Assembly (NCBI RefSeq): GCF_010093445.1
Contig: NZ_PDWW01000006.1
Location: 62,001-126,000 of the forward strand
DNA length: 64,000 bases
Direction of reading: 5' to 3'
Origin: Pseudoxanthomonas japonensis
GTDB taxonomy: Bacteria > Pseudomonadota > Gammaproteobacteria > Xanthomonadales > Xanthomonadaceae
Below the pieces are notes generated by a model. The model was not told the origin of the DNA, did no database searches, and was given only the letters and a program-made list of their open reading frames with translations. The position numbers were made by a program, and so were the translations under genes. Of this stretch, positions 44,167 through 54,908 are shown in pieces. Numbering within the stretch: the stretch's first letter is position 1; each line of letters begins with the position of its first letter.

Positions 44167-46080
44167 TTACTGGCCTGCCGACGCCTTCGCCAGCAGCGCC
44201 TCGACCGACCCGGTCGTGATCGGGTGGTACCCCGGCCTGGCGCGCGCGAAGCTTTCCTTCGCCAGCGCGAGGCCTTCCGGCGTCTTCACCAGCTCTTCGT
44301 AGACCGGCATGATCAGCTTGCGGCGACCGACGCGCTCGATGAACCTGGCGATCTCCGGGCGCGCCTCCACGTAACCGCTGCGGATGGTCAGCGGATACCA
44401 GCGCATCGCGATCTCGCCGTTGGCCGTGCCGGTGAAGTGGTAGGCGTCATCCAGCTGCTTGAGCTGTTCGACCGTCAGCGTCTCGCCCATGCCTTCGAGG
44501 AAATGCACCCACTGCTGGGTCACCCAGGCGTCGGTCAACTGCTTGTTCGGCAGCTGGCCGCTGCCCTGCCAGGCGATGCGCGCGGTGTCGGTATTGGAGA
44601 ACCCGCGCGACTGCACCTGCGGCGCGGTGGCCGGAATGCCCGTGCCGTACACCCAGGTCTGGATCTCCGCGTCGGAGACCAGGTTGGGATGCTTGTCGAA
44701 CAGATTCTTCTTTGCGTAGTCGAGGAACTGCTCGGTGGTGATGCTCTGGAACGCGAAGTGGTCGAAGTAACCGCGCAGGAAGGCGTCGAACTCCTGGCGG
44801 CCGAAACGCTCTTCCAGGAACTGCAGGAACCACGCGCCCTTGTCGTACGACACCGCGCTGAGCGCGTCGTCGGCGTCCAGCTGCGTGCCCGGCTTGACTG
44901 CCAGCGACTGGGTCGCTTCGGGCATCGTGCCGATCTCCTTCTTCAGCGCATTGCGGGCGATGGCGTACTCCATGCTCGCGGTTTCCTTGCCGTACAGCGC
45001 CTCGACGATGCGGTTCTCGACGTAGCTGGTGAAACCTTCATTGAGCCAGCCGTGCTTGGCGCTGGAGAACGTCACCAGGTTGCCCGACCAGCTGTGCGCC
45101 AGCTCGTGCGCGATCAGCGAGACCAGCGTCTTGTCGCCGACGATGACGGTCGGCGTGATGAAGCTCAGGCGCGGGTTCTCCATGCCGCCGTACGGGAACG
45201 ACGGCGGCAGCACCAGCATGTCGTAGCGGTCCCAGCGGTAGGGGCCGTACAGCTGCTCGGTGGCGGCGATCATCTTCTCGGTGTCTTCGAATTCCTTCGT
45301 GGCCCTGTCGACCATCGCCGGCTCGGCCCACACGCCGCTGCGCGCGGAGATCGGCTTGAACACCAGGTCGCCGGCGGCGATCGCCATCAGGTACGACGGG
45401 ATCTTCTGCGGCATCTTGAACGTGTAATCGCCGTCGCGCACGGCGGCTGGATCGTTGTCGGCGCTCATCAGTACCATGACGTCCGGGCGCGAGGTCACGT
45501 GCGCGCTGTAGGTGTAACGCACCTGAGGCGTGTCCTGCAGCGGCACCCAGCTGCGCGCGTGGATCTGCTGCGACTGGCTGAACATGAAGGGCAGCTGCTT
45601 GCCTTCGGTCATCTCCGGCGTCAGCCACTGCAGGCCCGAGGCCTCGGGCGAACTGGTGTAGGTGACCCGGACCTTGGCGTTGCGGGCCGGCGTCTCGATG
45701 GTCAGCTTGCTGCCCAGCACCGGATCCTTGGCGGCCAGCGCGTACTGCAGCGGCGCCCAAGCATTGCCGGCCTCGCCTTCGACCTTCTCGATCGTCAGGT
45801 CGCGCGTGTCCAGCACCAGCTGGGTGGCGGTCTTGTCCTTCCAGTCCAGCGTGTAGGTGGCGGTACCGCCGATGGTCTTCGCGTCGAAGTCGACGGCGAT
45901 GTCCAGCGCCAGATCGTCGATGGCGACCTTGCGCGGTTCGGCGTAGGAATGCTCGTCACGATCGACGGGCGTCTCGACGGCGGGCTTGGGCGTGGCGGCC
46001 ACGGGAGCGGATTCGGGTTCCTTGGAACAACCGGCCGCCAGCACGGCGGCGCAGGACAACAGCAAAGCCAGAGAACGCAT
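44167..46080 (-). CDS. M1 family aminopeptidase lipoprotein
   Basis: 637 residues with lipobox LAAGC after MRSLALLLSCAAV. The gluzincin site is LIAHELAHSWSGNLVTFSSAKHGWLNEGFTSYVE (about residues 310-345), with HExxH and the third zinc ligand glutamate 18 residues downstream. The substrate-binding GGMENP exopeptidase motif precedes it, and an N-terminal beta saddle domain and an alpha-helical C-terminal ARM-like domain (leukotriene A4 hydrolase type) flank it. It hydrolyses N-terminal residues from peptides in the periplasm. It is first in a four-gene operon. Confidence 0.94.
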   Translation of the reverse strand: MRSLALLLSCAAVLAAGCSKEPESAPVAATPKPAVETPVDRDEHSYAEPRKVAIDDLALDIAVDFDAKTIGGTATYTLDWKDKTATQLVLDTRDLTIEKVEGEAGNAWAPLQYALAAKDPVLGSKLTIETPARNAKVRVTYTSSPEASGLQWLTPEMTEGKQLPFMFSQSQQIHARSWVPLQDTPQVRYTYSAHVTSRPDVMVLMSADNDPAAVRDGDYTFKMPQKIPSYLMAIAAGDLVFKPISARSGVWAEPAMVDRATKEFEDTEKMIAATEQLYGPYRWDRYDMLVLPPSFPYGGMENPRLSFITPTVIVGDKTLVSLIAHELAHSWSGNLVTFSSAKHGWLNEGFTSYVENRIVEALYGKETASMEYAIARNALKKEIGTMPEATQSLAVKPGTQLDADDALSAVSYDKGAWFLQFLEERFGRQEFDAFLRGYFDHFAFQSITTEQFLDYAKKNLFDKHPNLVSDAEIQTWVYGTGIPATAPQVQSRGFSNTDTARIAWQGSGQLPNKQLTDAWVTQQWVHFLEGMGETLTVEQLKQLDDAYHFTGTANGEIAMRWYPLTIRSGYVEARPEIARFIERVGRRKLIMPVYEELVKTPEGLALAKESFARARPGYHPITTGSVEALLAKASAGQ

Positions 46081-46272: not shown

Positions 46273-47034
46273 TCAGACCTTGTAGCCGGTGTGGATGGCC
46301 ACGATGCCGGCGGACAGGTTCTTGTAGCTGGTCCGGGCGAATCCGGCCGCGTCCATCATGCCCTGCAGCTCGGCCTGCGGCGGGTGCTTGCGGATGCTTT
46401 CGGCCAGGTACTGGTAGCTGCCGGCGTCCTGGGCGAACAGCTGGCCCAGCTTCGGCAACACCTTGAACGAGTGGAAGTCGTACATCGGCTTGAACCAGTC
46501 GACCGTGACCTCGGAGAACTCCAGCACGCGCGCCTGCCCGCCGACCTTCAGCACGCGGTGCATGTCGCGCAGCGCGGCTTCCTTGTCGGTGACGTTGCGC
46601 AGGCCGAAGGCAATGGTGACCAGGCCGAAGCTGGCGTCCGGGAACGGCAGCTTCTCGGCGTTGCACTGCACGTACTCCAGGCCCTGCACCACGCCGCGGT
46701 CGGTCATGCGGTCGCGGCCGACCGACAACATGCCGGCGTTGATGTCGCCCAGCACGATCTGGCCGGTATCGCCCACCCGATCCTTCAACAGCGCGGCGAT
46801 GTCGCCGGTGCCGCCGGCCAGGTCCAGCACGCGGTCGCCGCGCTTCACCTGGCAGGTGCCGACGAAGTAGCGCTTCCAGACCCGATGGATGCCCAGGCTC
46901 ATCAGGTCGTTCATCAGGTCGTACTTGCCGGCCACCGAGGTGAAGACCTCGCCGACCAGCTTCTGCTTGTCCTTGGCGGCGACGTCGCGGAAGCCGAAAT
47001 GGGTGGTGCCGCGTTCGTAGGGGGATTCGCTCAT
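46273..47034 (-). CDS. ubiE: bifunctional demethylmenaquinone/2-polyprenyl-6-methoxyphenol methyltransferase
   Basis: A 253-residue UbiE. SAM-binding motif VLDLAGGTGDIAALL (residues about 66-80), the preceding KYDLMNDLMSLGIHRVWKR and the post-motif segment VTIAFGLRNVTDKEAALREMH-like GLRNVTDKEAALRDMHRV are diagnostic. It carries out C-methylation in ubiquinone and menaquinone synthesis. It is single, with its 3' end near a repeat and its start 37 bases after the stop of the upstream protease gene. Confidence 0.96.
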   Translation of the reverse strand: MSESPYERGTTHFGFRDVAAKDKQKLVGEVFTSVAGKYDLMNDLMSLGIHRVWKRYFVGTCQVKRGDRVLDLAGGTGDIAALLKDRVGDTGQIVLGDINAGMLSVGRDRMTDRGVVQGLEYVQCNAEKLPFPDASFGLVTIAFGLRNVTDKEAALRDMHRVLKVGGQARVLEFSEVTVDWFKPMYDFHSFKVLPKLGQLFAQDAGSYQYLAESIRKHPPQAELQGMMDAAGFARTSYKNLSAGIVAIHTGYKV

Positions 47035-47071: not shown

Positions 47072-48703
47072 TCAGCGCTCGAACGGCGCACAGGCTGGCG
47101 ATGCCTGCCATCGCCGCGCCGGCAGGCCGCAGACAGGCGCCCTACGCGGTGGGCCGCCGGGTAGCGCACCGGCGTCCGTCCGCCCCGTGTGCAGCGGGTG
47201 CGCGGACGACGTGGGCAGGCTGCGTTCCAGCATGGGGGCAGGCGTGCTCATCACGCGCGGGCGGGGTCCGATCCGCACCCGGAAGCCCGTGGGCGTCGAG
47301 GCGACGACCGACACCCAGTGCCGGCCATCCGGCGTGTTCCAGTGCTCGCCCACCTTCAGCATGGAGCCTTCGTTTCCCGACAGGTCGGCCGGCGGCGTGT
47401 CGGTGTCCACGCTGTAGGCGGCGCCGTTCCCGGCCACCCGGTGGATGATCACCGCATCGCCCGCCAGGGCGGACTCGTAGGCGCCACTGCGACGGCGGGC
47501 CTCCAGCGTGTAGGACACGGTGCGGTAGGGATCGGGCTGCGCTTCGCCGCCCAGCACCACCAGTTGCACCTGGTCGGATCCCGCCACACTGCCCGCGTCG
47601 AGCACGATCTCGTGAATCGCCTCGTTGTCGAACGGCACGAGCCGCTTGCGCGCCGGCGGCAGCCAGCCCAGGCGGTCGCGCTGGTGCATGCTCAGGTGCT
47701 TGGGCAGCAGCCCCAGCACGGGATCGGTGGTGGCGTGGCGCCAGGCGTCGCTCATCAGGTCCCACGGGTTGTCGTGGGTATCGGCGTCGCCGTCGGAATT
47801 GTCCGAATGCGGCAATCCGTAACCGTGCCCCATCTCGTGCGCCAAGCTGGCGACATTGTCCGAGGCCCACGGCGGACTCCACGTCGCACGCGTGCAGGCA
47901 TCCACGCCCTCCAGCAGGCCACAGGCACCGCCTCCCCACGCACGGCCGTCCAGTTCGCCGTTGAACACCAGGTTGATGCCCTGCACGCTGCGGAAATCGA
48001 CGTCCGCCTCCGCCTGGGCGACGCAGTCGTTGAACAGCCGCGACAGGTCCGCGCGCGGCTTCCCGGCGATGCTCGGGACGTAGTCCGCCCTCGCCGCCGG
48101 CAGCGTGTACCAGCCATACGCCGCACTGCCGGCCAGATGGATCGCGCCGTAGGACACCTCGGACCAGTAGTGGCCCAGCTGGCCCGGCGCATCGCCGTAC
48201 TGCGCCTGGAAGAACGCGCGCGACTTGGGCTCCACCGCGATGTCGGCGAACTTGCACATCAGCGTCACCCAGCGGGTGCCGCCCGTCACGGGCGCCGCCA
48301 TCGCGATGCGCCCCCCCGCCTCGCGCACGGTCGCGCGCTGCGGCAGGCGTCCCACCGGCACGATGGCCTCGATGACCGGGTCGGAGGAGACGCTCTTGCG
48401 CGGTACGTACGACACCGCCACGCGCCGGTTCGACAGGGCGGCGAGATCGCCCGCGGCACGCAGGGCCTCGACCTCGTCCAGCCGGTAGCGCAGGCCCGGG
48501 CCGAGATTCAGCCACGCCTCAAACACGGGCGGCGTCGCCGGATGGCCGGGCGGTGCGGCCCGCGCATCGCCCCAGCGAAGCTGCAGTGTGCCCTGCACGA
48601 TGTCGCTGCCCTCCAGGGCGTGCGCCGGCGCACAGCAAACGCCCACCAGCGCCACGACGCCTGCCAGCGCCCGACGGGTGGTCATTCCTGCGGTTCGTCG
48701 CAT
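47072..48703 (-). CDS. secreted metzincin-type metalloprotease, tandem copy 1
   Basis: About 543 residues; possible starts are 48724, a GTG at 48712 behind GGAGG, 48703 or 48685. A signal peptide (ALAGVVALVGVCCAPAHA) precedes VQGTLQLRWGD, a prodomain-like region and a catalytic domain with HEMGHGYGLPH, an Asp-rich SDNSDGDADTHDNPWD stretch, Met in WDLMSD and the LGWLP segment, as in M6 and M11 (gametolysin-like) peptidases. A beta-rich domain (AVIIHRVAGNG; SMLKVGEHW) and a Pro-rich linker follow. It ends C-x12-C-x4-R. It is the most divergent copy near the linker. Extracellular proteolysis is inferred. Confidence 0.88.
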   Translation of the reverse strand: MRRTAGMTTRRALAGVVALVGVCCAPAHALEGSDIVQGTLQLRWGDARAAPPGHPATPPVFEAWLNLGPGLRYRLDEVEALRAAGDLAALSNRRVAVSYVPRKSVSSDPVIEAIVPVGRLPQRATVREAGGRIAMAAPVTGGTRWVTLMCKFADIAVEPKSRAFFQAQYGDAPGQLGHYWSEVSYGAIHLAGSAAYGWYTLPAARADYVPSIAGKPRADLSRLFNDCVAQAEADVDFRSVQGINLVFNGELDGRAWGGGACGLLEGVDACTRATWSPPWASDNVASLAHEMGHGYGLPHSDNSDGDADTHDNPWDLMSDAWRHATTDPVLGLLPKHLSMHQRDRLGWLPPARKRLVPFDNEAIHEIVLDAGSVAGSDQVQLVVLGGEAQPDPYRTVSYTLEARRRSGAYESALAGDAVIIHRVAGNGAAYSVDTDTPPADLSGNEGSMLKVGEHWNTPDGRHWVSVVASTPTGFRVRIGPRPRVMSTPAPMLERSLPTSSAHPLHTGRTDAGALPGGPPRRAPVCGLPARRWQASPACAPFER

Positions 48704-48724
48704 CCATCCCACGGTGGCCTCCAT

Positions 48725-48746
48725 GTCGTGACATCACGTTCACGAC
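48725..48746. promoter_or_regulatory. perfect dyad GTCGTGA-N8-TCACGAC upstream of protease copy 1
   Basis: A 7-bp inverted repeat with an 8-base spacer lies just before the first possible start of copy 1. It could be a regulator site or an RNA hairpin in the leader. No match to a known box is claimed. Confidence 0.35.
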
Positions 48747-48874
48747 TAAGGCTTTATCGCGATCCGGCGCCGAAGGCGGAAACCGGGAGCGGGATCGATG
48801 TCGTTCCGTGTCCGGTTCCACGCAGCAGCGCACGTTCCGGACGCCACCTACCACCGCTGACGGCCTCCAGGCGG

Positions 48875-50533
48875 TCAGCGGACCAGCAGCGCGCACACCA
48901 TCGGCAGCCTGAGCACGCGCGGCACGGCTTCACAGCCGCGCGATCGCCGCACCGGAGGCGGTGCGCTGCGCGCGACGACCGGCGGCGGTGGCGCCCCGAC
49001 CGCCACGCCCGCGCGCTGCGCCGTGCCGCCCTGCAGCAGGGCGGGCGTCGGCGCACTCATCGCGCGCGTGCGAGGACCGACCCGCACCACGAAGCCGCGT
49101 GCCGTTTCCGACACCACCTGGACCCAGTGGCGCTCGTCAGGCGTGCTCCACTGTTCGCCCACCTTCAGCATGGAGCCTTCATTGCCGGAGAAATCCGCTG
49201 CGGGCGTGTCCGTGTCGACACTGCGGGCGATGCCGTAGTCCTCGATCCGGTGGATGATCACCGCATCGCCCGCCAGCGCGGACTCGTAGACCCCTTGCCT
49301 GCGGCGCGCCTCCAGCGTGTAGACCACCGTCCTGTACGGATCGGGTTGCGTGGGCATCGCCAGCACCAGCATCTGCGTGCCGCCGGCGTCGCCCGGGCCG
49401 GCCGCGTCGAGCACGATCTCGTGCGTGTCGCGATTGTCCGCGGCGACGGTGCGCTTCTGGCCGGGCGCCAGCCATCCAAGGCGATCCCGCTGGTACATGT
49501 TCAGGTACTTGGGCAGCAGCCCGTAGGTGGCGTCGGTGGCGGCCCTGCGCCAGGCGTCGCTCATCAGGTCCCAGGGATTGTCGTAGGTGTCGGCATCGCC
49601 GTCGGAATTGTCCGAATGCGGCAGGCCGTAGCCGTGTCCCATCTCGTGCGCAAGCGGCGCCAGGTTGTTGAACGACCACGGTGGATTCCATGTCGCACGC
49701 GTGCATGCGTAGGCACCGTCCAGCGTGGCGCAGGCACCGCCACCCCATGCGCTGCCATCCAGCTCGGCGTTGAACATCAGGTTGACGCCCTGCACGCCAC
49801 TGAAGTCGACCGCGGCGTCGGCCAGCGCGGTGCAATCGGCGAACAGCAGCGACAGGTCCGCGCGCGGCCGGCCGTTGACGGTCGCGACATAGGCGGACCG
49901 CGGCTTCGGCAACGTGTACCAGCCATGCGCGCTGCTGCCGTCCAGGTCGATGGCCCCCTGCGAGACTTCGGACCAGTAGTGGCCCAGCTGTCCCGGCGCG
50001 TTGCCGTACTGGGACTGGAAATACGCGCGCGGCTTCTGCTCGGCGCCCATGTCGGCGAACTTGCACATCAGCGTGACCCAGCGCGTGCTGCCCACCATCG
50101 GCGCCGCGGCCATCACGCGTCCGTCCTGCCCCGCCGCCAACGCGCGCTGCGGCACGCGATCCGCGGGGACGATGGCGCTGATCACCGGTTCGGCCGGGGC
50201 TGCCGACATCACCTTGCCCGCCGACGCGATGTTCGCCCGCATGCCGTAGGACACCGCGACGCGCCGGTTCGCCAGCGCGTACAGGTCGCCGGCCGCACGC
50301 TTGGCCTGCGCCACGTCCAGCCGATGGCGGCGACCGGGGCCGGCATCCAGCCACGCTTCGAACTGCGCGGGCGGTGACGCGCCACTTTTCGTCGCATGCG
50401 GCGCATCGCCCCACCGCAGCTGGAGCACGCCCTGCACGATCTCGTCCGCACGCGCCTCCACCGCCGCCACGCAAGCGAACAGGCAAGCCGCCAGCGCGAC
50501 CGCGCGTGGCGCGGCCTTCTTGTCCAAGCCCAT
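48875..50533 (-). CDS. secreted metzincin-type metalloprotease, tandem copy 2
   Basis: 552 residues from the ATG at 50533, which follows GGAG by six bases. Signal peptide APRAVALAACLFACVAAVEARA. The core matches copies 1 and 3: RWVTLMCKFADM, QYGNAPGQLGHYWSEVS, GGGACATLDGAYACTRATWNPPWS, HEMGHGYGLPH, the Asp-rich loop and LMSDAW. Two cysteines eleven positions apart in the GGGAC...AC stretch suggest a disulfide near the active site. The C-terminal linker is Pro/Ala/Val-rich, and the protein ends GCEAVPRVLRLPMVCALLVR. All zinc ligands are present, so activity is expected. Confidence 0.9.
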   Translation of the reverse strand: MGLDKKAAPRAVALAACLFACVAAVEARADEIVQGVLQLRWGDAPHATKSGASPPAQFEAWLDAGPGRRHRLDVAQAKRAAGDLYALANRRVAVSYGMRANIASAGKVMSAAPAEPVISAIVPADRVPQRALAAGQDGRVMAAAPMVGSTRWVTLMCKFADMGAEQKPRAYFQSQYGNAPGQLGHYWSEVSQGAIDLDGSSAHGWYTLPKPRSAYVATVNGRPRADLSLLFADCTALADAAVDFSGVQGVNLMFNAELDGSAWGGGACATLDGAYACTRATWNPPWSFNNLAPLAHEMGHGYGLPHSDNSDGDADTYDNPWDLMSDAWRRAATDATYGLLPKYLNMYQRDRLGWLAPGQKRTVAADNRDTHEIVLDAAGPGDAGGTQMLVLAMPTQPDPYRTVVYTLEARRRQGVYESALAGDAVIIHRIEDYGIARSVDTDTPAADFSGNEGSMLKVGEQWSTPDERHWVQVVSETARGFVVRVGPRTRAMSAPTPALLQGGTAQRAGVAVGAPPPPVVARSAPPPVRRSRGCEAVPRVLRLPMVCALLVR

Positions 50534-50627
50534 GATGTGCTCCGAGTGCGCGCAGTGCCGCGCGACTACTCGGGACATCGCCAAGACGCGCCGAATGCGG
50601 CAAGCGGATCGGCATTTCCGGCGACGA

Positions 50628-50645
50628 CATTCCGTTTCTGGAATG
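50628..50645. promoter_or_regulatory. CATTCC-N6-GGAATG dyad upstream of protease copy 2
   Basis: A 6-bp perfect inverted repeat lies about 95 bases before the copy 2 start, inside a 262-base gap to copy 3 that holds no gene. It may be a regulator site; the same motif was not seen upstream of the other copies. Confidence 0.3.
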
Positions 50646-50795
50646 GAGGTCGATCTTCGCCTGCGCCGCCTTGCGCATTCCTTCGCGGCGAATACGAATG
50701 CAGTCGTGTCCGCTCAAGCACCGTGTTGTCACTCGTGAATGCGATTACATCGACACTCCACGCACGCCCACATCAATGCATCGCGGCCGCCACGG

Positions 50796-52472
50796 TCACC
50801 GTTCGAGCCATACGCACACCGGCGCCAGCCTCAGCAACGAAGGCAGGGCGTCGCAACCGCGACGGCGCACGGAGGACTGCGGACGGGCGGCGGGTGTGGG
50901 CGCCGAGGGACGCGGCGTGGCGGGCGACGACGAGGCCACCTGCGTCGGACGCTCGAGCACCGGTGCCGGCGAACTCATCGACCGCTGCCGGGGACCGACG
51001 CGCACCACGAATCCCTGTGCGGTGGCGGACACCACTTCCACCCAGTGCAGTTCGTCCGGCGTGTTCCAGCGCCCCCCGACCTTCAGCATCGAGCCTTCGT
51101 TGCTCGAGAAATTCGCCGCCGGCGTATCGCGGTCGACGCTGTACGCGATGCCGTAGTCCTCGAGCCTGTGGATGATCACCGCGTCGCCGGCCAGGTTCGC
51201 TTCGTACGTACCGGTGCGCCGGCGCGCTTCCAGCGTGTAGATCACGGTCTTGTACGGATCGGGCTGCGCCGGCAGGGCGAGCACCACCAGCTGCGTGTTG
51301 GCCGTCTTCAGCACGCTGCCCGCATCGAGCACGAACTCCTGCGTCTCGCGGTTGTCCGCCGCCACGACGCGCTTGCGCGACGCCGGCAGCCAGCCCAGGC
51401 GCTCGCGCTGGTACATGTTCGGATGTTTCGGCAGCAGACCGTAGGTGGCATCGGTGGTCGCGTTGCGCCACGCGTCGCTCATCACGTCCCACGGGTTGTC
51501 GTAGGTATCGCTGTCGCCGTCGGAGTTGTTGGAGTGCGGCAGTCCGTAGCCGTGCCCCATCTCGTGCGCCAGCGGCGCGAGGTTGGCGAACGACCAGGGC
51601 GGGCTCCAGGTCACGCGCGTGCACGTGTAGGTGCCATCCAGCGTGGTGCAGGCGCCGCCGCCCCACGCGCTTCCGTCGAGCTCGCCGTTGAACATCAGGT
51701 TGACGCCCTGGATGCCGGCGAAGTCCACGTCGGCATCGGCCGCTGCCGCACAGTCCGAGAACAGCTCCGACAGCTGCGCCTTCTGCCTGCCGTTGACATC
51801 CGCCAGGTAGGCCGCGCGTGGCTTCGGCAACGTGTACCAGCCGTGCGCGGAACTGCCCGCCAGGTTGATCTGCCCGTAGGAGACCTCGGACCAGTAGTGG
51901 CCCAGCTGCCCCGGTGCGTTGCCGTACTGGTCCTGGAAGAAACTGCGCGGCTTCTGCTCGGTCGCGATGTCGGCGAACTTGCACATCAGCGTGACCCAGC
52001 GCGTGGCGCCGAGCACCGGCGCGGACGCCATCACGCGTCCGTCCGCTCCCATCGCGAGTGCGCGTTGCGGCAGCCGGTCCGTCGGCACGATGGCGCTGAT
52101 CACCGGCAACGCGCCCGATGCGGCCATGACCTTCGACGACGCAGCCAGGGTCGCGCGCGTGTCGTACGACACCGCAACGCGGCGGTTGGCGAGGGCATAC
52201 AGGTCGCCTGCCGCGCGCTGCGCCTGCGCCACGTCCAGCGCCACGCGACGACCGGGCCCCATGTCGAGCCAGGCGTCCAGATGCGGCTGCGCCTGCGTGC
52301 GCCCGGGCTGCGCGCGCGGAGGATCCGCCCACTGCAGCTGCAATGTTCCCTGCACCACCGTTTCCGCCTTCGCATGAAGGCCTGGAAGGATGCATGCCCA
52401 TACCGACATTCCAACGACGAAGAGCGCCCGAACGCTCCTGCGTCGCGTGTCGGCTGATCCGTGTCTGACCAC
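50796..52472 (-). CDS. secreted metzincin-type metalloprotease, tandem copy 3
   Basis: About 558 residues from a GTG at 52472; a TTG at 52490 and an ATG at 52409 are alternatives, and no start has a strong ribosome binding site. An arginine-rich leader precedes ALFVVGMSVWACILPGLHAKA. The catalytic part has RWVTLMCKFADI, GGGACTTLDGTYTC, HEMGHGYGLPH, an Asn-for-Asp change in SNNSDGDSDTYDNPWD and VMSDAW. It is close to copy 2 throughout. The Ser/Thr/Pro-rich linker ends in GCDALPSLLRLAPVCVWLER, nearly identical to the copy 2 end, pointing to a recent duplication. Confidence 0.88.
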   Translation of the reverse strand: MVRHGSADTRRRSVRALFVVGMSVWACILPGLHAKAETVVQGTLQLQWADPPRAQPGRTQAQPHLDAWLDMGPGRRVALDVAQAQRAAGDLYALANRRVAVSYDTRATLAASSKVMAASGALPVISAIVPTDRLPQRALAMGADGRVMASAPVLGATRWVTLMCKFADIATEQKPRSFFQDQYGNAPGQLGHYWSEVSYGQINLAGSSAHGWYTLPKPRAAYLADVNGRQKAQLSELFSDCAAAADADVDFAGIQGVNLMFNGELDGSAWGGGACTTLDGTYTCTRVTWSPPWSFANLAPLAHEMGHGYGLPHSNNSDGDSDTYDNPWDVMSDAWRNATTDATYGLLPKHPNMYQRERLGWLPASRKRVVAADNRETQEFVLDAGSVLKTANTQLVVLALPAQPDPYKTVIYTLEARRRTGTYEANLAGDAVIIHRLEDYGIAYSVDRDTPAANFSSNEGSMLKVGGRWNTPDELHWVEVVSATAQGFVVRVGPRQRSMSSPAPVLERPTQVASSSPATPRPSAPTPAARPQSSVRRRGCDALPSLLRLAPVCVWLER

Positions 52473-52630
52473 GCGCGACCCCGTTTGCAACCGGCGGGTC
52501 GAGATGACGCCGCCATGGCCGGGGTGTCGGCAGGACGCGGACGCTCTTGAGGGCCTTCAGGCGCGAATCGCACCGGATGTTCCGAACTGCGATGCAGGTC
52601 AGGAATCGACAGCGAACATCATCGTTTTAC

Positions 52631-52664
52631 GCCCCGACAACGCGCACTTGCACGATGTCGGGGC
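52631..52664 (-). terminator. 9-bp perfect hairpin after protease copy 4
   Basis: GCCCCGACA and TGTCGGGGC pair across a 16-base loop, 22 bases after the copy 4 stop. No T-run follows on the minus strand, so it may stabilise or attenuate rather than terminate. The 213 bases between copies 4 and 3 hold no gene. Confidence 0.45.
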
Positions 52665-52685
52665 ACGTAGGGACATCCCCTACAT

Positions 52686-54311
52686 TCAGCGCTCGCGGAT
52701 CGCGCAGGCGATGGCAGGCGAACGCATGCCACCAGCGACGCAGCGCGTGACCGCCGGCGTACGTTCGCGCGCACCGCCAGAGGCGGGTTGCGCAGCCGGC
52801 AATGCGAGGGAAGACGGCGCCACCGCGTCCGGTTTCAGGCGTGGCGGCAAGGGTGTGCTCATCACGCGCGCCGGCCCGACCGTCAGCACGAACCCGGTCG
52901 CCGTCTGCGCCTTGACGGTCACCAGGTGCGAGGCTTCGGGCGTCATCCAGCGCTCGCCCACCTTGAACATCGATCCTTCGTTGTTCGAACGGTTCGCGGG
53001 CGGCACGTCGGCATCGATGCTGTAGGCGGTCCCGGACCGTTCGACCTTGTGGATGATCACCGCATTGCCGGCCAGGTTGCCTTCGTACGTACCCTCGCGC
53101 TTCCGTGCCTCCAGCGTGTACACCACGGTGGCGTAGGGATCGGCCTGCGGCGACATCGAGAGCACCAGCATCTGCACGTTCGTCGAGCCCGCCAGGTGCG
53201 CGTAGTCCAGCGTGATGTCGCGCGTCGTCCTGTCGGCGAGCGCCACGATCTGCTGCCGCGGCGCATCCACCCAGCTCAGGCGGTGGCGCTGGAAGATGTT
53301 GATGTGCTTTGGACGCGTGCCGTACGTGGTGTCGCCGACCGCGTTCGACCAGCTGTCGCTCATCACGTCCCACGGGTTGTCGTAGGTATCGTCGTCGCCA
53401 TCGGAATTGTCCGAGTGCGGCAGGCCGTAACCGTGTCCCATCTCGTGCGCGAGCGGGGCGAGGTTGCCGAACGACCACGGCGGGTTCCACGTAACGCGCT
53501 TGCACAGGCGCGCGCCGCGCACCGTGGCGCAGCTCTGTCCACCCCAGGCATAGCCGTCCAGGTTGCCGTTGAACATCATGTTGATGCCCACCGGCGCGGT
53601 CAGGTCGACGGTGTCCGGTGCGGCCGACGCGCAGTCGGCGAACAGCTTGTTGAGGTCTGCCTTGTCCTTGCCATCCACGGTCGTGACATACGTGGAACGC
53701 GGACTGGGCAGCGTGTACCAGCCATGCGCGGTGCTGCCCGTCAGGTTGATCTTGTTGTACGACACCTCGCGCCAGTAATGACCGAGCTGGCCGACGCCTT
53801 CGCCGTACTGGGACTGGAAGAACGCCAGGTCCTTCTGCTCGTCCGCGAGGTCGCTGAACTTGCACATCAGCGTCACCCAGCGTGTGGTGCCGCTGATCGG
53901 TGCAGCCGCCATCACGCGGGCATTGGCGGCATGCATGGGTGCGGATTGCGTCACGCGATCGACAGGCACGATGGCCTCGATAGCCGGCATGGATGACATG
54001 ACGCGTCCCGCGGGCGCGAAGGCCACGGCAACGCGGCGATTGGCCAGCACGTACAGATCGCCCGCCGCCAGCTTCGCCTGCGCGGGATCGAGGCGGATGC
54101 GGGTGCCGTCGTCCTTCAGCAGCGAGGCGTTGAACTGCGGCGCACGCCGTGGCTGTCCCTTCGCCACGGGTGGCGGATCGCCCCATTCCAGATGCAGCAA
54201 CCCTTGTTCGATGGCCTGTGCGCGCGCGTCCGTCGCCGACGACATCGCACACATGACCAGTACCGCCACCGCCCACGCGCGGCACGGCGGCGCCTTGGCA
54301 TCCTTCCCCAT
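52686..54311 (-). CDS. secreted metzincin-type metalloprotease, tandem copy 4
   Basis: 541 residues from the ATG at 54311, three bases after GGAG. Signal peptide WAVAVLVMCAMSSATDARA. The core is shared (RWVTLMCKFSDL, QLGHYWREVSY, HEMGHGYGLPH, SDNSDGDDDTYDNPWD, VMSDSW), but this is the most distant copy in the catalytic region: GGQSC replaces GGGAC, and RHRLSWVDAP replaces the DRLGWL segment. It is first in transcription order. The linker is Pro/Ala/Leu-rich and the end is CVAGGMRSPAIACAIRER, keeping the paired-cysteine and terminal-Arg pattern. A distinct substrate preference is possible. Confidence 0.88.
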   Translation of the reverse strand: MGKDAKAPPCRAWAVAVLVMCAMSSATDARAQAIEQGLLHLEWGDPPPVAKGQPRRAPQFNASLLKDDGTRIRLDPAQAKLAAGDLYVLANRRVAVAFAPAGRVMSSMPAIEAIVPVDRVTQSAPMHAANARVMAAAPISGTTRWVTLMCKFSDLADEQKDLAFFQSQYGEGVGQLGHYWREVSYNKINLTGSTAHGWYTLPSPRSTYVTTVDGKDKADLNKLFADCASAAPDTVDLTAPVGINMMFNGNLDGYAWGGQSCATVRGARLCKRVTWNPPWSFGNLAPLAHEMGHGYGLPHSDNSDGDDDTYDNPWDVMSDSWSNAVGDTTYGTRPKHINIFQRHRLSWVDAPRQQIVALADRTTRDITLDYAHLAGSTNVQMLVLSMSPQADPYATVVYTLEARKREGTYEGNLAGNAVIIHKVERSGTAYSIDADVPPANRSNNEGSMFKVGERWMTPEASHLVTVKAQTATGFVLTVGPARVMSTPLPPRLKPDAVAPSSLALPAAQPASGGARERTPAVTRCVAGGMRSPAIACAIRER

Positions 54312-54452
54312 GATCTCCGACTCCCCAGGTTCCGGTGCGCCTTCCGCACCGCGTCCTGCGTTCTAACCGCTCGCCGGCGCATGCGCCGTGAGTGGTATCA
54401 CATTCTCCACGTGTGGGATGCTGCGCACCTGACACCACCGGCCTTTCACCGC

Positions 54453-54908
54453 ATGAGCACGTCCATCGACTACCACGCCCTCCTCCAGACCGCCATCGCC
54501 GAAGCCCGGCAGGGACTCGCGGAGGGCGGCATCCCCATCGGCGCCGCGCTCTACCACCAGGACGGGCGCCTGCTCGGCTGCGGCCACAACCGCCGCGTGC
54601 AGGAAGGCGACCCCTCCGTGCACGGCGAGACCGACGCCTTCCGCAAGGCCGGCCGCCAGCGTCGCTACCGCGACACGATCATGGTCACCACGCTGGCGCC
54701 CTGCTGGTACTGCAGCGGGCTGGTGCGCCAGTTCAACATCGGCACCGTGGTGGTCGGCGAATCGGTGACGTTCCAGGGCGGCATCGACTGGCTGCGCGAA
54801 TCCGGCGTCGAGGTCGTCGACCTGCACGACCAGGAATGCATCGACCTGCTCGGCGGCTACATCCGCGCCAATCCCGAGGTGTGGAACGAGGATATCGGCG
54901 AGGACTGA
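54453..54908 (+). CDS. nucleoside/cytosine deaminase family zinc enzyme
   Basis: A 151-residue cytidine deaminase-fold enzyme. The zinc site is HGE (SVHGETDAFRKAG, about residue 62) and PCWYC (TLAPCWYCSGLV, about residue 90), giving the H-x-E and PCxxC ligands. The IDWLRESGVEVVDLHDQECI segment and overall length resemble yeast-type cytosine deaminase rather than TadA. It would convert cytosine or a related base to uracil with ammonia release. It is divergent from the protease array across 141 bases. Confidence 0.86.
   Translation: MSTSIDYHALLQTAIAEARQGLAEGGIPIGAALYHQDGRLLGCGHNRRVQEGDPSVHGETDAFRKAGRQRRYRDTIMVTTLAPCWYCSGLVRQFNIGTVVVGESVTFQGGIDWLRESGVEVVDLHDQECIDLLGGYIRANPEVWNEDIGED

What the first reader, a model, noticed from the sequence alone, without database searches (positions are those of the whole stretch)
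47072..54311. Tandem array of four paralogous secreted metalloproteases
Four consecutive minus-strand genes of 540-560 codons share the zinc motif HEMGHGYGLPH, HYW(S/R)EVS, LMCKF, DNPWD(L/V)MSD and a C-terminal beta domain, yet differ in linkers and loops. Copies 2 and 3 look most recent; copies 1 and 4 are more divergent. Four retained zinc sites argue for function, and each copy has its own gap of 150-260 bases. M6/M11-like zinc proteases are established families; expansion as a four-gene array with this architecture is unusual and may be lineage-specific.
Basis: partly seen in the sequence, partly recalled or inferred. Interest (0 to 1): 0.8.

Follow-up and report, generated by a model that had tools for sequence, protein, structure and literature searches.

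The report
Array of four secreted metalloproteases
A bacterium related to Pseudoxanthomonas carries four side-by-side genes for what look like secreted zinc proteases of a poorly described kind, each kept working by selection and ending in an unusual short cysteine-bearing tail; the array is real and lineage-specific, but of a broadly familiar sort.

Summary
Four adjacent minus-strand genes (47072-54311) encode apparently secreted metzincins (HEMGHGYGLPH, Met-turn WDxMS). The four copies fall below every Pfam and NCBIfam cut-off; the nearest model is the M6 domain TIGR03296. The site is fixed: in 38 genus genomes, deaminase and ubiE flank four copies in 5, two in 10, one in 8, a contig-split case in 1, and none detected in 14. 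Each copy's closest kin is the same-position copy in other species. A recent burst from copy 2 is rejected (AU p 0.002), so the downstream copies look older and were probably lost in two-copy species. Cores are under purifying selection (dN/dS 0.06-0.32). Substrate unknown. In relatives the same core ends in other short C-termini; one of these (IFxDGFD/E) gives 118 pattern hits in a Dokdonella genome. New variant of a known kind.

The parts
52686..54311 (-). Copy P4, first gene of the array (position 1), 541 aa, metzincin with apparent signal peptide
50796..52490 (-). Copy P3, second gene (position 2), 564 aa from a TTG start
48875..50584 (-). Copy P2, third gene (position 3), 569 aa from a TTG start
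47072..48724 (-). Copy P1, fourth gene (position 4), 550 aa
53415..53447 (-). Zinc motif HEMGHGYGLPH of P4 (residues 289-299)
51534..51566 (-). Zinc motif of P3 (residues 309-319)
49616..49648 (-). Zinc motif of P2 (residues 313-323)
47807..47839 (-). Zinc motif of P1 (residues 296-306)
52689..52760 (-). C-terminal cysteine tail of P4 (last 24 codons; Cys 524 and 536)
50799..50870 (-). C-terminal cysteine tail of P3 (Cys 546 and 559)
48878..48949 (-). C-terminal cysteine tail of P2 (Cys 551 and 564)
47075..47146 (-). C-terminal cysteine tail of P1 (Cys 532 and 545)
54387..54402 (-). CRP/Clp-like site TGTGATACCACTCACG, 75 bp before the P4 start codon and about 50 bp before the inferred start of the divergent deaminase gene
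46273..47034 (-). ubiE, conserved flank downstream of the array
54453..54908 (+). Deaminase-like gene (PF00383), conserved flank upstream of the array (start inferred from where conservation begins)

Best explanation
The four genes encode secreted zinc endopeptidases of the metzincin kind, most like the M6 (immune inhibitor A) domain. Each protein has an apparent Sec signal peptide, a pre-catalytic region of about 110-120 residues that probably acts as a prodomain, a catalytic domain with the HExxHxxGxxH zinc site and Met-turn, a beta domain, a variable Pro/Ser/Ala-rich linker and a short C-terminal tail with two cysteines at near-fixed spacing, probably a disulfide loop. The array sits at a fixed site between a deaminase gene and ubiE. 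Copies persist as separate orthologous lines, so they probably differ in substrate or expression. The proteins most likely leave the cell through the type II system and digest external protein as part of a Clp-controlled extracellular enzyme set. Shown: motifs, predicted fold of two copies, synteny, tree, selection, tail geometry, and presence of the CRP-like site, of a CRP gene and of a T2SS secretin gene. Inferred: signal peptide (by eye), catalysis, prodomain role, export route, Clp control, disulfide, substrate, division of labour.
For: All four zinc sites and Met-turns are intact. TIGR03296 matches 60 of 60 aligned relatives at E up to 0.01. Confident models for P3 (pLDDT 84.6, pTM 0.79) and P1 (84.1, 0.80) show much the same order of elements; P3's best PDB match is an InhA2 zymogen (E 2.8e-10, TM 0.48/0.40). 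Core dN/dS is 0.06-0.32 in all 16 ortholog comparisons. Both flanking genes are in 38 of 38 genomes, and the copies lie between them in the loci read. A CRP-like site scores 9 of 10 in 13 and 8 of 10 in 2 of 15 multi-copy loci. The genome holds a CRP above the NCBIfam cut-off (317.5 vs 266 bits) and a GspD above cut-off. In Xanthomonas, Clp activates extracellular enzymes (PMC6430473, passages seen).
Against: No window copy reaches a family cut-off. P1's model does not return the M6 structure among the 50 rows shown; its best matches are O-glycopeptidase constructs at E 1e-4 with TM 0.25. P3's model also matches other metzincins weakly, among them fragilysin structures (E 8e-4 and weaker). The CRP-like site lies between two divergent genes and could serve the deaminase; 8 of 10 positions in a 190-bp stretch turns up in 2-5% of simple shuffles, and the 15 genomes are related. 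No sigma-70-like promoter was found. Linker (20-33 codons) and tail (18-24 codons) dN/dS values are noisy. There are no expression or activity data.
Confidence: 0.72

Rival explanations
1. Redundant dosage array: the copies do the same job and are kept only because more protease is better.
For: Same predicted fold in the two copies modelled and invariant active sites in all four; 50-68% identity.
Against: Each position forms its own orthologous group in the best tree, without sign of whole-gene homogenisation (position 2 support only 72/54). Rates differ by position: core dN/dS is 0.07-0.11 at position 1 and 0.12-0.30 at position 4. Upstream regions differ between positions.
Confidence: 0.2
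2. Recent lineage burst: positions 3 and 4 and the dispersed copy arose from position 2 only in the ancestor of the five four-copy species.
For: Gene content alone suggests it: four copies in 5 genomes, two in 10.
Against: Holding position 2 of the five with positions 3, 4 and the dispersed copies is rejected (AU p 0.0018; with G013 added p 0.017). Faster change after duplication could bias this test.
Confidence: 0.2
3. The proteins work like O-glycopeptidases (Amuc_1438, OgpA), cutting glycoproteins or mucin-like matrix instead of bulk protein.
For: Foldseek places an Amuc_1438 chain second for P3 (E 2.5e-4) and first for P1 (E 1e-4); PF05548 (M11) is 0.7 bit under its cut-off for P3.
Against: TM-scores of 0.24-0.36 with rmsd over 11 A for the Amuc_1438 'ALT' chains mean that little more than the shared metzincin core aligns. 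No glycan-binding domain was reported by Pfam or NCBIfam.
Confidence: 0.1

Closest known systems
M6 family metalloprotease domain (TIGR03296; immune inhibitor A, PF05547)
   Same: Zinc-site region over most of the domain model, and post-catalytic beta region; best sequence model and, for P3, best solved fold.
   Different: The four copies score 50-74 bits against a cut-off of 110.8. The third zinc ligand is His; that InhA has Asp in that place is my recollection, from no call. The Cys tail lies outside the matched stretch.
Gametolysin M11 (PF05548) and the O-glycopeptidases OgpA/Amuc_1438 (that these two belong to M11 is recalled)
   Same: HExxHxxGxxH metzincin core; weak fold match.
   Different: 20.3 bits against 21 for P3 and not listed for the other three window copies; TM about 0.25 on the query length.
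Reprolysin-like M12B (PF13688 and relatives)
   Same: Zinc-site region; PF13688 matches 58 of 60 members at E up to 0.01.
   Different: 21.6-24.1 bits against 27 in the window copies, over only 54-65 residues.
GlyGly-CTERM / rhombosortase and MYXO-CTERM tails
   Same: A short C-terminal signature on secreted proteins, ending in positively charged residues in GlyGly-CTERM (starts of the abstracts of PMC6219818 and PMC11980579 seen in the listing).
   Different: No long hydrophobic stretch and no Gly-Gly motif in the 19 tails aligned; two cysteines at near-fixed spacing.

Membership tests
Metzincin clan (MA(M)) | HExxHxxGxxH zinc motif | tested here: met
   4 of 4 window copies; the motif's H, E and G residues are invariant in the 60 sequences aligned
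Metzincin clan (MA(M)) | Met-turn downstream of the zinc motif | tested here: met
   WDLMS/WDVMS in 4 of 4; M337 invariant. That this Met sits in the turn is inferred from the motif.
M6 (TIGR03296 / PF05547) | Score over the curated cut-off | tested here: not met
   49.6-74.2 bits vs 110.8; 10.4-21.0 bits vs 22
M6 (InhA-like) | Fold match to a solved M6 structure | tested here: inconclusive
   P3 model: E 2.8e-10, TM 0.48/0.40; P1 model: not among the 50 rows shown
M11 (PF05548) | Score over the curated cut-off | tested here: not met
   20.3 bits vs 21 for P3; not listed for the other three
Secreted protease | N-terminal signal peptide | tested here: inconclusive
   By eye only: basic n-region, hydrophobic stretch, small residues before the core; modelled as a helix at residues 14-37 of P3 and 13-30 of P1. 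No signal-peptide program was available.
GlyGly-CTERM rhombosortase substrate | Gly-Gly motif, membrane-spanning segment, basic end | tested here: not met
   No such motif or segment in 19 aligned tails, by eye; NF038115 at 11 bits vs 150
Clp/CRP-controlled extracellular enzyme | Regulator binds the promoter and controls expression | not testable with these tools
   Only the sequence match and the presence of a CRP gene were tested

The most novel reading that the evidence does not exclude
The C-terminal cysteine tail is an unrecognised sorting or export signal. Across this family one conserved catalytic core carries interchangeable lineage-specific C-terminal tags: a C-x(10-12)-C loop in Pseudoxanthomonas, TGG plus a basic end in Luteimonas, and IFx(D/N)GF-like ends in Rhodanobacteraceae and Thermoanaerobaculales. 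Each tag would hand the same protease to a different export or anchoring machine.
Probability: 0.22. Interest if true: 0.72.

Novelty: new variant of a known kind. Interest (0 to 1): 0.42.

Why it matters
The array gives a clean setting in which to ask why a bacterium keeps several versions of one secreted protease: one chromosomal site, related species with zero, one, two and four copies there, and intact orthologous lines. The tail and the different C-terminal ends of relatives point to possible sorting signals on which the searches made here showed nothing. The enzymes also form a subfamily that scores below current family cut-offs in the window copies.

Tried and rejected
Mobile element or phage origin: no match in 50,697 phage records, one distant plasmid match at 27% identity over 60% of the query, flanking genes conserved in 38 of 38 genomes. 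Anti-phage defence: no PADLOC match for the four copies. Tail shared with other proteins of the same genome: a 19-row tail profile (positions 2 and 3) found only P3 and P2 convincingly in the own genome (the next match has E 0.3). It missed even P1 and P4, so degenerate tails elsewhere are not excluded. CRP-like site as an ancestral feature of the locus: best scores are 6-8 of 10 in 8 single-copy loci and 5-7 of 10 in the 10 of 14 protease-free loci examined; the three 8-of-10 cases (G001, G015, G022) lie on the other strand. Promoter and terminator scans were uninformative. Literature: I saw listings only of searches (46, 69 and 73 capped at 10-12 of 42, 59 and 366 papers) found no paper; nothing in them concerned this array, the tail or the IFxDGFE tag. 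The library holds open-licence papers only. A first script looking for the IFxDGFE tag used a wrong spacing and found nothing; it was corrected. Rows dropped before counts: loci under L048, proteins of 400 aa or less, frames without a stop in the locus, and L052 and L069 (same-genus records); G023_2 was left out of the upstream alignment; the linker was measured in 36 of 40 copies. The family-wide search scored only three candidates per genome, so its copy numbers are lower bounds.
Full report
WHAT IS THERE. Four minus-strand ORFs of 550, 569, 564 and 541 aa lie at 47072-48724 (P1), 48875-50584 (P2), 50796-52490 (P3) and 52686-54311 (P4). In transcription order P4 is position 1, P3 position 2, P2 position 3 and P1 position 4. 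All carry HEMGHGYGLPH, a Met-turn WDLMS or WDVMS, and four conserved core cysteines plus two near the C-terminus. The window is in a 4.08-Mb, 74-contig genome; the closest named records found are Pseudoxanthomonas. A fifth copy lies elsewhere in the genome.

FAMILY. No Pfam gathering score is reached by any of the four copies, and the M6 domain model TIGR03296 gives them 50-74 bits against 110.8. TIGR03296 matches 60 of 60 aligned relatives at E up to 0.01, PF13688 matches 58, PF05547 26 and PF05548 22. Profiles of 4 and 60 sequences found no solved structure by sequence better than E 0.079. AlphaFold2 models of P3 and P1 are confident over most of the pre-catalytic, catalytic and beta regions and poor in the linker; the tail is modelled with moderate confidence as short helices in P3 and as disordered in P1. 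P3's top PDB match is an M6 zymogen (TM 0.48/0.40), followed by Amuc_1438 and fragilysin chains at E 2.5e-4 and weaker. P1's top matches are O-glycopeptidase constructs with TM about 0.25, and the M6 structure is not among the 50 rows shown. I therefore call it an M6-like metzincin subfamily and not a member of M6.

LOCUS AND COPY NUMBER. The flanking ubiE and deaminase genes are present in 38 of 38 genus genomes. Protease relatives are found in 24 of 38 at E up to 1e-20. Between the two flanks, 5 genomes have four copies, 10 have two and 8 have one. One (G014) has a copy beside each flank on two separate contigs. Of the 14 without a match, 10 were read: 2 have only 81-101 bp between the flanking matches, and 8 have 1.0-4.4 kb without any protease match. 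The other 4 have roughly 50-180 bp between the two flanking matches (positions). The five four-copy genomes also have a dispersed copy; none of the ten two-copy genomes does. In 395 sampled genomes of the family, the genus included, 45 have a relative.

HISTORY. An IQ-TREE tree of 70 rows gives position 1 as one clade (15 rows, 100/100), position 2 (15 rows, 72/54), position 3 (5 rows, 92/86), position 4 (5 rows, 93/88) and dispersed copies (5 rows, 100/99). Positions 2-4 plus dispersed copies are together at 100/100; with position 1 and the single copy of G036 added, 85/88. The four window copies are not a clade of their own (p 4e-49): orthologs across species are closer than paralogs. A recent origin of positions 3, 4 and dispersed copies from position 2 of the five genomes is rejected (p 0.0018), so the longer array is probably older and was shortened in ten genomes, although faster change after duplication or horizontal gain remain possible. 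Whether position 3 is nearer to position 2 or to position 4 is open (p 0.256), and independent origin of positions 3 and 4 in G012/G028 is not excluded (p 0.334). Dispersed copies do not follow the species order: G000 groups with G028 and G012 and not with G018, and G018's copy shares no neighbour frames with the others in the stretches compared.

SELECTION. In 16 ortholog comparisons over five genome pairs, core dN/dS is 0.06-0.32. The last 24 residues are constrained at position 2 (0.06-0.19 in four pairs; the fifth could not be computed) and position 3 (0.15-0.31, three pairs), but less at position 1 (0.27-1.0, five pairs) and position 4 (0.56-1.01, three pairs). The linker has a higher ratio than the core in 15 of 16 comparisons, with wide scatter (0.03-2.2, 20-33 codons each).

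THE TAIL. C-x(10-12)-C followed by 3-7 residues to the end occurs at position 1 in 15 of 15, position 2 in 15 of 15, position 3 in 5 of 5, position 4 in 4 of 5 and dispersed copies in 1 of 5; a looser form (x8-12) occurs in 4 of 9 single or extra copies. Position 2 has exactly 12 and 5 in 13 of 15. The linker before it varies from 30 to 41 residues in the 36 of 40 copies where both marks were found. Among 673 control frames of 250 aa or more from the same loci, 3 have the geometry; these mix coding and non-coding frames. In the 19-row alignment of position 2 and 3 tails, both Cys, one Pro, one Leu and one Arg are invariant. Outside the genus 1 of 47 listed proteins matched a looser pattern, a Desulfobulbaceae protein of different make-up. 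There the C-terminus differs by lineage: R or K is last in 15 of 19 Lysobacteraceae, 8 of these 19 with TGG near the end, and FxxGF-like ends occur in 7 of 8 Rhodanobacteraceae, 2 of 2 Thermoanaerobaculales and 2 of 19 Lysobacteraceae. For comparison 159 of the 673 control frames end in R or K. These different ends on one core are why I suspect a sorting role; it is inference.

REGULATION. TGTGATACCACTCACG at 54387-54402 is the only exact TGTGAN6TCACR in the window (0.25 expected; 19 of 100 shuffles had at least one), so on its own it is weak. Its strength is conservation: 8-9 of 10 positions at a similar place in 15 of 15 multi-copy loci, against 6-8 in 8 single-copy loci and 5-7 in 10 protease-free loci. 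Relatedness of the 15 genomes lowers the weight of this count. The genome has a CRP over the NCBIfam cut-off and a T2SS GspD over cut-off. Clp of Xanthomonas campestris activates extracellular enzymes and is governed by cyclic-di-GMP (PMC6430473, passages). Upstream stretches of positions 2 (14 orthologs) and 3 (5 orthologs) also hold conserved blocks, unlike each other.

JUDGEMENT. The kind of thing, a tandem family of secreted metalloproteases, is familiar; the subfamily, the fixed-site copy-number series and the tail are the new parts.

Noticed in passing
L073 (Dokdonella fugitiva), L067 (Tahibacter aquaticus), L088 (Thermoanaerobaculales); sampled sites L150-L169: A short C-terminal tag [ILVFM]Fx[DN]GF[DE], seen on some protease relatives, recurs genome-wide: 118 pattern hits in Dokdonella (control 1), 44 in Tahibacter (0), 49 in the Thermoanaerobaculales genome (0), none in the window's genome (control 1); L071's genome was not held. 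In 20 of the 118 Dokdonella sites looked at, the tag lies 0-22 residues before a stop in 18; in 2 the frame runs off the stretch. It looks like a C-terminal sorting or processing tag on which my searches showed nothing.
   Followed up: partly
L107, L109, L111, L113, L115: The dispersed fifth copies mostly lack the Cys tail (1 of 5 has it) and their tree conflicts with the species order; G018's copy sits in a different, lower-GC neighbourhood (63.4%), about 65 kb from the array.
   Followed up: partly
L102 (G029 C5:280000-291000): A divergent extra copy in a genome with one copy at the main locus lies in a low-GC stretch (56%), suggesting horizontal gain.
   Followed up: no
window 52491-52685 (before P3) and 50585-50795 (before P2), minus strand: Conserved blocks in the spacers upstream of positions 2 and 3, different in each, conserved in 14 and 5 orthologs aligned; possible regulatory elements or RNA, or uncertain gene starts.
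   Followed up: no
window 44167-46080: A leukotriene-A4-hydrolase-like M1 aminopeptidase gene with a lipoprotein-like start (by eye) lies beyond ubiE in 22 of the 23 ubiE-bearing loci compared, the other being cut by a contig end.
   Followed up: no
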